A DNA stretch of 64,000 bases, from assembly GCA_903813345.2 (NCBI GenBank), contig CAIIXF020000005.1, positions 32,179,375 to 32,243,374 of the forward strand, written 5' to 3'. Below the pieces are notes generated by a model. It did not search any database and was not told the DNA's origin. It was given only the letters and a program-made list of their open reading frames with translations. Each line of letters starts with the position of its first letter. The stretch's first letter is position 1. The stretch is from Owenia fusiformis. Its lineage: Eukaryota > Annelida > Polychaeta > Sabellida > Oweniidae. This document shows positions 46,501-52,500 of the stretch, in pieces. The position numbers were made by a program, and so were the translations under genes.

Positions 46501-49500
46501 AGTAAAATACGTGGGGCCATTTTTCAAAATGGCCACCTTCTACCAAAAGTGTCATTAGACAGTGTGCCATGCTTTTAGTATTCACATACCAAATATAAAC
46601 AAAATCGCTCCACTACTTTTCGAGTTATAGTGAAATACGTTAAAATGGCAGCCATTTTTCAAAATGGCCACCTTCTACCAAAAGTGTCATTAGACAATGT
46701 GACATGCTTATAGTATTCACATACCAAATATGAACAAAATTGCTTCATTACTTTTCGAAATACGTTAAAATGGCGGCCATTTTTCAAAATTTTTTCAAGA
46801 TGGCCGCTTTCTACCAAAAGTGTCATAGGACAGTGTGCCATGCTTATAGTATTCACATACCAAATATGAACAAAATTGCTTCCCTACTTTTCGAGTTATA
46901 GTAAAATAAGTTAAAATGGCGGCCATTTTTCAAAATGGCCGCCTTCTACCAAAAGTGTCATAGGACAGTGTGCCATGCTTATAGTATTCACATACCAAAT
47001 ATGAACAAAATCGCTCCACTACTTTTCGAGTTATAGTAAAATATGTTAAAATGGCGGCCATTTTTCAAATTTTTTTTCAAAATGGCCGCCTTCTACCAAA
47101 AGTGTCATAGGACAGTGTGCCATGCTTATAGTATTCACATACCAAATATGAACAAAATCGCTCCACTACTTTTCGAGTTATAGTAAAATATGTTAAAATG
47201 GCGGCCATTTTTCAAAATGGCCGCCTTCTACCAAAAGTGTCATAGGACAGTGTGCCATGCTTATAGTATTCACATACCAAATATGAACAAAATCGCTCCA
47301 CTACTTTTCGAGTTATAGTAAAATATGTTAAAATGGCGGCCATTTTTCAAATTTTTTTTCAAAATGGCCACCTTCTACCAAAAGTGTCATAGGACAGTGT
47401 GCCATGCTTATAGTATTCACATACCAAATATGAACAAAATCGCTCCACTACTTTTCGAGTTATAGTAAAATATGTTAAAATGGCGGCCATTTTTCAAAAT
47501 GGCCGCCTTCCACCAAAAGTTTCTTTAGACAGTGTGCAATGTTTATAGTATTCACATACCAAATATGAACAAAATCGCTCCACTACTTTTCGAGTTACAG
47601 CAAAAATCGTAAAATAACGAGTAAAGGCCGCCATTTTTCAAGATGGCTGCCATGTGCTCTTTTAATATCTACATTTGTAGCTTTATTAATGTCCTTTATA
47701 ATTTTTTTACACTTAAAACATATTGCTATTACAGTTTTACATATTGTACCTAAATTACTGTAAAATCGGCACTAAAATGGCCGCCATTTTGAAATGAGCG
47801 GCCATTTTGAAAATCGGCTTTCGAGCAGAACTTCTTCTCCCATAGGGTATATGTGTACAAAATATGAACAAAATCGGGCCAACGGTATTTGAGTTATTGC
47901 CCGGACGGACAGACGGACGGACGGACGGACGGACGGACGGACGGACGTACGTACATACGGACGGATTGACGGAGGCGTTCCCTATATCCCTCCGAACTTC
48001 GTTCGATGGGATAATGAAGCAGCCATACTGACACTTCCTACTTGGGCAGAAGTCCTATGCCCAGAATGCAAAATCCTTTACAATGTAAACCAAACGTGAC
48101 AACAATTAATATCACCTGGACAGACAAACTGATGGATGAGTGGATGAAATATATGGATAAGGCTTCTCTCTATCTAACTCCAGCTCGTTCACTGGGATAA
48201 TTGCAATAATATTTGATAAATATATCTCACTTACCCATATAAGGTTTTGTTCCAGACAGGGATGTTGCCAATTGGTTATCATGTAGAACTGTGGCAATGT
48301 TGAAATCTGTTATATGTACATGCCCTGGAAGAAGTACAATTAAACATTATGTTATCATGTAGAACTGTGGCAATGTTGAAATCTGTAATATGTACATGCC
48401 CTGGAAGAAGTACATTTAAAAAGTAGGTTATCCTGAAAACTGTAGCAACATTGAAATCTGTAATATGTACATGCCCTGGAAGAAGTGCAATTATCATTAT
48501 GTTATCATGTAGAACTGTGGCAATGTTGAAATCTGTTATATGTACATGCCATGGAAGAAGTACATTTAAACATTAGGTTATCATGTAGAACTGTAGCAAC
48601 ATTGAAATCTGTAATATGTACATGCCCTTCAAGAAGCACATTTAAACATTAAGTTATCATGTAAAACCGTGGAAATGTTAAAATCTGTTATATGTACATG
48701 CCCTGGAAGAAGAACAATTAAATATTATGTTATCATTTACAACTGTGGCAATGTTGAAATTTGTTATATGTACATGCCCTGGAAGAAGTACAATTAAACA
48801 TTAGGTTATCATTTAGAACTGTGGCAATGTTGAATTCTGTTATATGTACATGCCCTACAAGAAGTACAATTAAACATTAGGTTATCATGTAAAACTGTGG
48901 CAATGTTGAAATCTGTTATATGTACATGCCCTACAAGAAGTACAATTAAACATTAGGTTATCATGTAGAACTGTGGTAATGTTGAAATCTGTTACATGTA
49001 CATGCCCCCCTGGAAGAAGTACAATTTAACATAAGATTATCATGTAGAACTGTGGCAACATTTAAATCTGTAATATGTACATGCCCTGCAAGAAGTACAA
49101 TTAAACATTATGTTATCATGTAGAACTGTGGCAATGTTGAAATCTGTAATATGTACATGCCCTGGAAGAAGTACAATTAAACATTATGTTATCATGTAGA
49201 AATGTGGCAATGTTGAAATTTGTAATATGTACATGCCCTGGAAGAAGTACAATTAAACATTAGGTTATCATGTAGAACTGTGGCAATGTTGAAATTTGTT
49301 ATATGTACATGCCCTACAAGAAGTACAATTAAACATTAGGTTATCATGTAAAACTGTGGCAATGTTGAAATCTGTTATATGTACATGCCCTGGAAGAAGT
49401 ACAATTAAACATTAGATTATCATGTAGAACTGTGGCAATGTTGAAATTTGTTATATGTACATGCCCTACAAGAAGTACAACTAAACATTAGGTTATCATG

Positions 49501-52500
49501 TAGAACTATGGCAATGTCGAAATTTGTTATATGTACATGCCCTAGAAGAAGTACAATTAAACATTAGATTATCATGTAGAACTGTGGCAATGTTGAAATT
49601 TGTTTCATCTACATGCCCTAAGGACAAGCAAATTAAGGTTGGACTCAGAACATTATCTATAGAAACTCAATAAAATGATGCTTTTGAGGGTCAAATGAAT
49701 TAGAATCCTAAATATATTTAATTTTCAACTGTCAATAATACTTTCAAATTGTGCGATCATCCAAAATACTCCTATGACAGTTTAAATATTATAAAAATAA
49801 TGTGAATGATACAGGAAAAGTTACCAAAATATATATTTCACTGGCATCCTAGGCTACACACATCCCAAAGTCAAACCATATTAAAGATATGCCAGTATTA
49901 ACTGTACTGTTGAAGGCTATCATAGGAATTAATAAGTGAAAAATGGAATTCTGCCTACTTCAGGTATTTTCAAGTTCATTTTCCAATTAACGACCATCCA
50001 AAGAAATGTACTTTTGGGAACATAACCCATCTGAATAATCGCTGATTTGTGATCTGAAATCATACTTATGAGCCTCTTAGGCTTGTATTCTGTACTCATT
50101 AAGGGTTATTCTATGTTCAGTAGTTTGATGCATCAGAGTAGATAGTAGTACTAGAAGAGTAGGATGCTCCTACATCGAAAGCACAAACAATAAACTTTGG
50201 AGGTTCCCATCCACTGGCGGATTAGGGGGGGGGGGCCTGGTGGCCCCCCTTGGGTGGGCCCAGAAAAAAAAATTGGGCCCAAAATTTTTTTTGGGCCAAA
50301 CAAGGCCTTCAGGCCCCAAAAAGTGGGCCTTTTTGGTCATTACTGGGCCTTTTAAGGCCTTATTTTTTAATTTTAGGCCAAATTTTGAAGAAAATGGGCC
50401 CAAAATTTTTTTCTTTAACCTGAAATTTGGCCCCCCCCCCTTGTTGGTTCCTAGATCCGCCCCTGCCATCTACATAATCACTCAAGAGCTCTCAGAACAA
50501 ATTAGTATGTCAAGAGATCTCCACACAATTAAGAGTACTATTACCCAGGGGGCAGTTTCTATTTATATGTGTACTGCATACCCCAAAAACCAATCTTCTT
50601 ACACAGTTCTCTCAGATGCTTGTTCTAACTTTAACTTTCGCAATATAAAGTTTTAGTACATCTACATGGTACATGGTTTAAGTAATAATTCAATAATCCA
50701 GCCAAATTATTCTAGCTTAGTCCATCTTGACTAAAAGTTTAAAGACAGAGAGGGCAAAAATAACCCCTGACTATTAGAGCTTGTATTCTGATCAGATCTT
50801 AATAATCTCAGTTTTAGCTTTAATGGTCTTTTATGGGAGTCTGAATGTGAAATATATGTCAGCTACAAACATAAAGACAAGGCATTAACATGCAAATGCA
50901 CCGAACACCAACCGCTGAACCCAGAACATCGAACACCAACCACAAAACACTGTTCACTGAAATTTCTGGTATTCCGACTCTGGATTCTAATTGGATATAG
51001 GCCAGATCAAGAAATTATCTCAAATTTAAAGGTCTTAGAGACCGAGCTAAGGCAAAGAGTAGGGTGGAATAGACACAAACCATAGGTGCAGATGTTGTTG
51101 ATTTTTTTAAAAGGTACCGAGTTGAATAGGCTAATGATTTTATCAGATAAACATACTCAACACCCTTGTGATTTGAGGTTCTTCCAAATGCTATTATGAC
51201 CTTCTTAAGAACTGTTCCAAGACTTCGAAATGTTGCCATAACACCATCAAAAAAGGATTAAATAGACTTGTAATCTTTCCAGAGACCATACTGGTTTCCT
51301 GAGTAGAGTCATAAACATTATGACTTACAGCTATTTTATACTTCAATGCTGCCAGGCTGCTAAAATATTAAAAGCCCTTATTAAAAGTTACATGTTAACT
51401 TCGCTGTCTTATCAACAGACAATAGAAAAATATCATTAATCTTACAATTTCAAGAAGTTTGATTATAAATGGATTGCTAGTGATAAAGGCATCAATTTCA
51501 TATTGATGAATGTAAAGGGAATGCAGAAAATGATATTTATTATAAGGGATTCTGAGATGGAAAACATAGCTATTAATCTAGTGGAACATTTTTGGTGGCA
51601 TGTAATACCAAAAGGAGATTCTTATGCCTTGTAAATCAAGACAAACTAGAGCTTTTACAATTAATTTTGATGTCAGATCAACATAGCATTTATTAAAGAT
51701 GCTGTATGGCATACTAAATGTTGATGTAAAATGAAGTTAATCACCGAGCTATGTTGAGCTTTCCTTATATAAATATTTTATATCTTGCAGACATTCCAAG
51801 AAACAACCCTTATATCTTGAACTTCATTATTGCATCAACTAGACTCATCCTTGTTCTTCAGTCTGCATACAGAGAGAAGATACAAGCCATGTCTTGTTCT
51901 CTTGCCAATGTTATTTTTACATCCCAATACAACATTAATTCTCCCTTACAAATAAATGATATGGAGCAGAATGGAAAATGTGGAACATGTAAGAATCTAA
52001 GGCTTGATCGGTGTAGCTACAATTCAATGAAAAATTGGTAAAATGCATATCAGTGATATTTCAATGGTTTATTTTGGGTGACATTGATATTTGATATTAT
52101 CAAATTCATATCAACTTATATTGTCCGTAAATAGGGGAAATATAATTATGATTTACTAGTGGTAAGGTTGGTATGACATGTTGGAAACTCTATCATTGAC
52201 AACAATCCAATATGCCCTCTGTCTAAATAACTATTCAACCGAACAAGAAAAATTACTCTTTCACCGCAGTTACACGCATCTGAAAGATCGCAATTAATTA
52301 ACGAGGTTACATCGCAAAAAATGTCACCACCTGGTAGTAAATCATATAAGAAAGAGTCACAGGCCCGTAGCCAGAATTTTTCAAGGGGGGTTCACTTTTC
52401 CAAAAAATTCTAGGGGGGGGTTCACTTTGGCAAATTTGGCCAAAATCACTCAAAAAATAGTCAGAATGGTGAAAAACTGCATGATTTTGAAAGAAATTTT

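What the first reader, a model, noticed from the sequence alone, without database searches (positions are those of the whole stretch)
48235..49615. Kinase exon head and its splice acceptor amplified about 17 times in the preceding intron
The 76-bp tandem unit upstream of the STK32 DFN exon is the exon's own first 51 bp plus its 3' splice site and upstream intron. The array therefore presents a long row of near-identical acceptors, and only the last is followed by the full exon and a donor. Because 76 is not a multiple of three, reading from the nearest decoy into the real copy reaches a TGA near the end of the second exon-derived stretch. The spliceosome must either skip the decoys or generate truncated messages, which could tune kinase output (poison-exon style). 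Neutral minisatellite growth is the simpler alternative.
Basis: partly seen in the sequence, partly recalled or inferred. Interest (0 to 1): 0.75.

Follow-up and report, generated by a model that had tools for sequence, protein, structure and literature searches.

The report
Splice-site minisatellite, common in this genome
A kinase gene in what is probably a marine worm has 17 spare copies of one exon's start and its splice signal lined up in the intron before it; this looks like largely neutral repeat growth of a kind known from amphioxus, and about one in fourteen of the exon matches sampled in this genome shows it too.

Summary
In STK32 (minus strand), 17 imperfect copies of the DFN exon's first ~51 nt plus its acceptor lie head to tail upstream of the true exon (48235-48324). 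Each of the 17 would truncate the protein if used; 16 still have an AG; 4 have a 23-nt acceptor identical to the true one. No GTRAG donor occurs in the array.

A poison-exon tuner is not supported: the decoys show no coding constraint, their AG is no more conserved than neighbouring columns, and the structure is not special to STK32. Of 256 kinase, kinesin and myosin exon matches from the same genome, 18 have boundary-spanning repeats (13 acceptor-side, 5 donor-side); one kinesin has 17 decoys. Edge for edge, exons are hit about as often as intron points (19/512 vs 21/426, p 0.42), though a looser segment test shows about half the intron rate (19/256 vs 29/213, p 0.03).

This is the 'mirage' minisatellite described in amphioxus, where splicing was reported undisturbed. 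The genome is probably an annelid (perhaps Owenia fusiformis), so lineage and prevalence are the new parts. Likely mechanism: exon definition picks the copy nearest the true partner site, leaving decoys nearly silent. No RNA evidence was available.

The parts
48274..49619 (-). 76-bp minisatellite, 17.7 TRF copies; each unit = end of the intron (pyrimidine tract, AG) + first ~51 nt of the STK32 DFN exon
   Evidence: TRF; copy list; no other place found in the genome
48325..49617 (-). 17 decoy acceptor + exon-head copies; exon-head starts at 49617 (c1, outermost, diverged), 49541, 49465, 49389, 49313, 49237, 49161, 49085, 49006, 48930, 48854, 48778, 48702, 48626, 48550 (AG lost), 48475, 48400
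   Evidence: no GTRAG donor in 48325-49620
48235..48324 (-). true STK32 exon (90 nt; [30 protein letters not shown], first residue shared with the preceding exon), acceptor ttcttccag|GGC, donor ATGG|gtaagt; the only copy with an exon tail and donor
52966..53003 (-). preceding STK32 exon ([12 protein letters not shown]), donor gtaagt
45588..45691 (-). following STK32 exon ([35 protein letters not shown])
   Evidence: one search took one base too many at each end; this affects only its row 18

Best explanation
The array is a boundary-spanning minisatellite of the kind called a 'mirage'. A tandem duplication that happened to straddle the 3' splice site of the STK32 DFN exon was expanded and shuffled by slippage or unequal exchange. 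In the pre-mRNA the splicing machinery mostly uses the true, exon-proximal acceptor, because only that copy is a short exon with a donor (exon definition); the decoys are nearly silent, and the few mis-spliced messages would carry early stops and probably be degraded. Selection therefore sees the array weakly at most. It is one of many in this genome. Shown: anatomy, premature stops, absence of GTRAG donors, no detectable constraint, recurrence at 18 of 256 sampled exon matches. Inferred: growth mechanism, exon definition, decay of mis-spliced RNA, near-neutrality.
For: (1) Decoy exon parts drift: 14 N: 6 S distinct changes against 27% S expected; AG no more conserved than its neighbours; six of 17 decoys read NFN or NFD in place of DFN. 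(2) Recurrence: boundary repeats at 18 of 256 exon matches (kinase 1/49, kinesin 13/127, myosin 4/80), 13 acceptor-side and 5 donor-side; the automatic test gave 19 and L077 was dropped by eye. (3) Placement: 19/512 exon-match edges against 21/426 intron pseudo-edges, Fisher p 0.42; the 19 are the same 18 loci plus an intron-only second side of L148. (4) Across 14 acceptor-side arrays including STK32, 69 of 74 decoys found keep AG and 65 of those 69 reach a stop; 10 of 14 arrays have at least one decoy whose 23-nt acceptor equals the true one, so there only context can single out the true site. (5) Amphioxus precedent: boundary-spanning repeats with AG/GT, different in length between haplotypes, reported not to interfere with splicing (PMC3087553, abstract and passages; PMC3902484, one passage). 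(6) The window holds several other minisatellites.
Against: No RNA was examined, so decoy silence is inferred. A looser background test (any repeat reaching from the segment into its flank) gave 19/256 exon matches against 29/213 intron segments (Fisher p 0.03): exons may be hit at half the intron rate, i.e. some arrays may be harmful. With kinase flanks alone as background it is 18/256 against 16/138, p 0.13. Window segments, chosen because of this finding, supply 13 of the 21 background edges; the flanks alone give 8/276 (p 0.68). Pooled over 11 acceptor-side arrays, differences from the true copy lean synonymous (18 N: 19 S, 9.9 S expected, p 0.002), driven by L041 (2:8) and L062 (0:3); in L041 two of the eight are private to the true copy, leaving 2:6. 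Recopying from the selected exon, or use of some decoys, could cause that. The exon sample was three families, not random, and clustered: 18 exons in about 14 gene loci.
Confidence: 0.8

Rival explanations
1. Poison-acceptor tuner: the decoys are used at a regulated level, giving truncated, decaying STK32 messages, and array length sets kinase output.
For: All 17 decoys lead to a premature stop; 4 have a 23-nt acceptor identical to the true one; 16 of 17 keep an AG.
Against: No detectable constraint on decoys; no GTRAG donor in the array, so only extended exons of 166-1383 nt could readily form; the same structure occurs at unrelated exons; amphioxus mirages reported not to interfere with splicing.
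Confidence: 0.06
2. Leaky, slightly harmful load: decoys are used at a low unregulated level, reducing output a little; drift keeps the array.
For: Identical acceptors make some leak likely; the looser segment test shows exons hit at about half the intron rate (19/256 against 29/213, p 0.03).
Against: No measured leak; the edge test shows no depletion.
Confidence: 0.12
3. Assembly artefact: the copies were created or multiplied by mis-assembly.
For: Tandem arrays are error-prone; a supplement legend in PMC3087553 tells of an aberrantly assembled mirage in a draft genome.
Against: 18 of 18 units differ; the same type with other units recurs at 18 other exon matches on several contigs; the published Owenia assembly is PacBio-based (PMC9977687, passages), if that is the species and assembly.
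Confidence: 0.02

Closest known systems
'Mirage' minisatellites of amphioxus (Adh3, globins BflGb6 and BflGb9, TnC; similar repeats in PGBD5), PMC3087553 and PMC3902484 (abstract/passages seen)
   Same: Tandem units spanning an intron-exon boundary; BflGb6 also repeats the intron's 3' end plus the exon's 5' part; units carry AG/GT; outer copies escape homogenisation, as c1 seems to here.
   Different: Probably an annelid rather than a cephalochordate; 17 decoys here against 6 and 3 units in BflGb6; found here in about 7% of sampled exon matches; splicing and length polymorphism not tested here.
Internal tandem repeats at exon-intron boundaries in human segmental duplications, PMC2812944 (abstract and passages seen)
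   Same: Minisatellites at exon-intron boundaries that can multiply splice sites.
   Different: There the repeats change exons or form new introns with RNA support; here the array is intronic and no alternative transcript is known.
Earthworm metallothionein genes, PMC12783039 (passages seen)
   Same: An annelid gene with intronic minisatellites, and in another clone two exon-4 duplications that do not appear in the final transcript.
   Different: The passages seen do not describe a tandem array across a splice boundary; one exon copy is reversed.
Poison exons / alternative 3' splice sites coupled to nonsense-mediated decay (recalled)
   Same: Use of a decoy would give a premature stop.
   Different: No own donor, no detectable constraint, no known regulation.
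1980s minigene experiments with duplicated splice sites (recalled; not read)
   Same: Identical competing acceptors in tandem, the true one set apart only by position and exon context.
   Different: Natural, 18 copies, in several genes.

Membership tests
Mirage minisatellite | Head-to-tail minisatellite units | tested here: met
   Period 76, 17.7 copies; 18 anchored copies
Mirage minisatellite | Unit spans an exon-intron boundary of a real gene | tested here: met
   ~25 nt intron tail + 51 nt exon head of STK32
Mirage minisatellite | Many units carry AG/GT splice signals | tested here: met
   AG in 16 of 17 decoys
Mirage minisatellite | Edge copies escape homogenisation | tested here: met
   Outermost c1 differs from the others at 18-34 sites; most pairs of other copies at 2-12, except c9 and c16, whose ungapped counts are inflated by indels
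Mirage minisatellite | Regular splicing is not disturbed | not testable with these tools
   No RNA data
Mirage minisatellite | Length differs between haplotypes or individuals | not testable with these tools
   Only one copy of the locus found in the assembly
Poison exon | Inclusion introduces a premature stop | tested here: met
   17 of 17 decoys
Poison exon | Alternative exon with its own acceptor and donor | tested here: not met
   No GTRAG in 48325-49620; best GT matches 6 of 9 consensus positions, true donor 7 of 9
Poison exon | Sequence conservation of the element | tested here: inconclusive
   No constraint seen within the array; cross-species comparison not possible
Poison exon | Regulated use | not testable with these tools
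   No RNA data

The most novel reading that the evidence does not exclude
In this lineage, boundary-spanning minisatellites are a standing, genome-wide population of duplicated splice sites (thousands of exons if the sample extrapolates). They persist because splicing is strictly exon-defined, and they act as a continuing source of new introns, alternative exon ends and length-variable proteins: kinesin exon L087, for example, is followed by five in-frame, open donor copies that would add 19-residue repeats. Some arrays, such as the synonymous-leaning kinesin array L041, may be expressed.
Probability: 0.2. Interest if true: 0.8.

Novelty: new member of a known kind. Interest (0 to 1): 0.5.

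Why it matters
Each such array is a natural splice-site competition experiment, here with 18 near-identical acceptors, in a gene that must still be spliced correctly. If mirages sit on several percent of exons in a probable annelid, as the sample suggests, they are not a cephalochordate oddity. Whether exon definition alone suffices to choose a splice site, and whether tandem boundary repeats feed intron gain (the model drawn for amphioxus globins), becomes testable on many loci in one animal with RNA-seq.

Tried and rejected
Rejected: regulatory poison exon (no constraint, no donor, recurrence elsewhere); assembly artefact (all units differ, many loci); dispersed repeat family (the unit was found at one place); a second STK32 gene or a copy without the array (no second close match among 80 rows); inverted repeats in the array (one 12-nt pair only). 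Cephalochordate origin of the genome is thought unlikely: 12 contigs make up about 477.5 of 498 Mb (lengths), where I recall 19-20 amphioxus chromosomes, and family PF16915, recalled as annelid-specific, matches over its cut-off. The 14 control genomes seem to be prokaryotes (kinesin and myosin ring over cut-off in none of them either), so that control says nothing about annelids.

Dropped before counting: kinase rows, 49 of 80 used (the rest are STK32's own or were not fetched, many with long open frames; my choice, not random); kinesin 127 of 144 (17 further rows of the L041 array counted once); myosin 80 of 92 (12 rows of a tandem exon cluster on C9 left out). L077 passed the first automatic test but I read it as a dispersed repeat in an intron. 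L135 shares only about 4 nt of exon with its copies and L137 is a single upstream duplicate; both are kept in the 18. L148's second side is intronic only. L010 (72%) and L022 (71-76%, related exons in my reading) failed the 80% threshold. In one search L079, L121 and L148 were left out, L042 could not be scored, and L085, L108 and L137 showed no changes. The probe misses STK32 copy c1; one search also counts c9 as lacking AG. Most sampled loci hold only 330 bp of flank, so their decoy counts are lower bounds.

Paper searches. Opened (passages): PMC3087553, PMC2812944, PMC3902484, PMC9977687, PMC12783039. The other listed papers were judged by title and start of abstract only. The Adh3 mirage paper was not held (DOI recalled).
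Full report
OBSERVATION. The minus strand of the window carries an STK32 gene: exons at about 62.6, 55.7, 53.0, 48.3 and 45.6 kb joined match human STK32A (PDB 4fr4) at E 1.6e-97, with the next family at 4.8e-48. Directly upstream of the 90-nt DFN exon (48235-48324) lies a 76-bp minisatellite (48274-49619, 17.7 copies, 89% matches). Anchored copy by copy it contains 18 exon heads, 17 decoys and the true one. Each unit is about 25 nt of intron end and 51 nt of exon head. 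All 18 are different, and a genome search with two units found no other place.

WHAT THE DECOYS COULD DO. 16 of 17 decoys keep an AG at, or in c9 3 nt from, the expected place. Four (c4, c6, c7, c12) have the same 23-nt acceptor as the true exon letter for letter, so a model of acceptor sequence alone could not tell them apart. Reading from any decoy through to the true donor meets a stop in 17 of 17 cases. The array has no GTRAG; its best GT scores 6 of 9 against the donor consensus, the true donor 7 of 9. So decoys would mainly lengthen the exon, not form cassette exons.

CONSTRAINT. Against the true copy, the 17 decoys show 20 distinct coding changes, 14 nonsynonymous and 6 synonymous, where 27% synonymous is expected without constraint. 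The AG columns hold one change over 16 decoys (c1 left out), and 60% of adjacent column pairs hold no more. Copy c4, fourteen units from the true exon, differs from it at one site only, while c17 next to it differs at five, so units have been exchanged along the array; the outermost c1 is strongly diverged. This is ordinary minisatellite behaviour.

NOT SPECIAL TO STK32. I fetched stretches around kinase, kinesin and myosin exon matches of the same genome, chosen by protein similarity. The kinesin and myosin families were added after the kinase sample had shown L012, and the kinesin array L041 had already shown itself as 18 rows at 159-bp spacing in the family search. A uniform test asked whether at least 10 bp of the exon match is repeated, with a copy outside it, within 330 bp. 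It flagged 19 of 256 matches: kinase 1 of 49, kinesin 14 of 127, myosin 4 of 80. Reading them by eye left 18; L077 looks like a dispersed repeat. Thirteen are on the acceptor side (L041, L042, L062, L079, L085, L088, L089, L106, L108, L121, L133, L137, L148) and five on the donor side (L012, L083, L087, L107, L135, the last with only about 4 nt of exon). By position they lie in about 14 gene loci; two kinesin loci have three each. L041 has the STK32 design: 17 decoys in 158-159-bp steps, only the last copy followed by the rest of the exon and a donor.

PLACEMENT. Boundary-spanning repeats cover 19 of 512 exon-match edges and 21 of 426 pseudo-edges placed in introns (13/150 in the window, 8/276 in kinase flanks); Fisher p 0.42. 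The 19 are the 18 loci above plus the intron-only second side of L148. Match edges are not exact exon edges, so this is approximate. A looser test of whole segments gave 19/256 exon matches against 13/75 window and 16/138 flank segments, p 0.03; with flanks alone and L077 dropped, 18/256 against 16/138, p 0.13. That test favours introns, because an array can cover a whole intron segment but hardly a whole exon, yet mild depletion at exons, hence mild harm, is not excluded. No exon match had repeats only inside it (0 of 256).

POOLED ANATOMY. With STK32 included, 69 of 74 acceptor decoys found keep AG and 14 of 17 donor decoys keep GT. Of the 69, 65 reach a stop and 4 are in frame and open. Of the 14 donor decoys with GT, 5 reach a stop, 3 shift the frame without a stop so far, and 6 are in frame and open, five of them in L087. 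10 of 14 acceptor arrays hold at least one decoy with an identical 23-nt acceptor, 18 of 73 decoys in all. If acceptors were chosen by scanning from the upstream donor to the first good AG, conserved motor-protein genes would be broken at most of these exons. Choice of the exon-proximal site, as exon definition predicts (recalled theory), is the simplest way to reconcile this. That is inference; no RNA was seen.

A RESULT THAT DOES NOT FIT SMOOTHLY. Pooled differences between decoys and true copies in 11 acceptor-side arrays lean synonymous (18 N: 19 S, 9.9 S expected, p 0.002). STK32 alone does not (12:6 in that count, which misses c1); L041 (2:8) and L062 (0:3) drive it. In L041 two of the eight synonymous differences are private to the true copy, leaving 2:6 among decoys. 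Recent recopying from the selected exon would explain it; use of some decoys is not excluded.

SPECIES. Twelve contigs make up about 477.5 of the 498 Mb (lengths). Family PF16915, the C-terminal domain of annelid haemoglobin linkers (specificity recalled), has three matches over its cut-off; the 14 control genomes of that search appear to be prokaryotes and do not test the point. A published Owenia fusiformis assembly spans 505.8 Mb in 12 chromosome-scale scaffolds (PMC9977687, passages). An annelid is likely, Owenia a fair guess.

PRECEDENT. Tandem repeats spanning exon-intron boundaries were named 'mirages' in amphioxus; BflGb6 repeats the end of an intron and the start of exon 2, with 6 and 3 units in two haplotypes, and RT-PCR suggested no interference with regular splicing (PMC3087553, abstract and passages). 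Adh and TnC are cited likewise in a paper on PGBD5 (PMC3902484, one passage). In human segmental duplications boundary repeats can create new introns (PMC2812944, abstract and passages). Earthworm metallothionein genes have intronic minisatellites and, in one clone, two exon-4 duplications absent from the transcript (PMC12783039, passages); the passages do not describe a boundary array. I found no report of mirages in annelids in searches, which cover open-licence papers only and whose other hits I judged by title and start of abstract.

VERDICT. A member of a known but little-noticed kind, with a functional claim that is not supported. The frequency in this genome is the part a specialist would not expect.

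Noticed in passing
L041 (G000:C2:23265900-23270100), minus strand: KIF4-like (my reading) kinesin exon with 17 decoy copies of its acceptor and first ~123 nt in 159-bp units; 2 N: 8 S differences from the true copy, and all 17 decoys lead to a stop.
   Followed up: partly
L087 (G000:C6:40705830-40706687), minus strand: Donor-side array of 57-bp units; all five distal donors found are in frame and open, so their use would add 19-residue repeats to a kinesin.
   Followed up: partly
L079 (G000:C6:17269695-17271428), minus strand: Repeated acceptors read AG|GTGAGC, which resembles a recursive-splicing (ratchet) site; two extra copies in the intron.
   Followed up: no
L042 (G000:C1:5598417-5600105): The two decoy exon heads (about ESLSALGHKG) resemble each other more than the true exon (ECIRALGRKG), as if they kept an older or different version (read by eye).
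   Followed up: no
G000:C9:37986009-37994334: Twelve matches to the same stretch of the myosin head (about positions 18-84) in a row, like a cluster of mutually exclusive muscle-myosin exons.
   Followed up: no
window 46244-47605: 135/282-bp minisatellite rich in AAAATGGC(C/G)GCCATTTT-like palindromes in the next STK32 intron; one of several arrays in or near this gene (also 43918-44430, 56933-57545, 60573-61134).
   Followed up: no
L148 (G000:C9:5823769-5824623): Myosin exon flanked by two different minisatellites, one across the acceptor, one in the intron just after the donor.
   Followed up: partly
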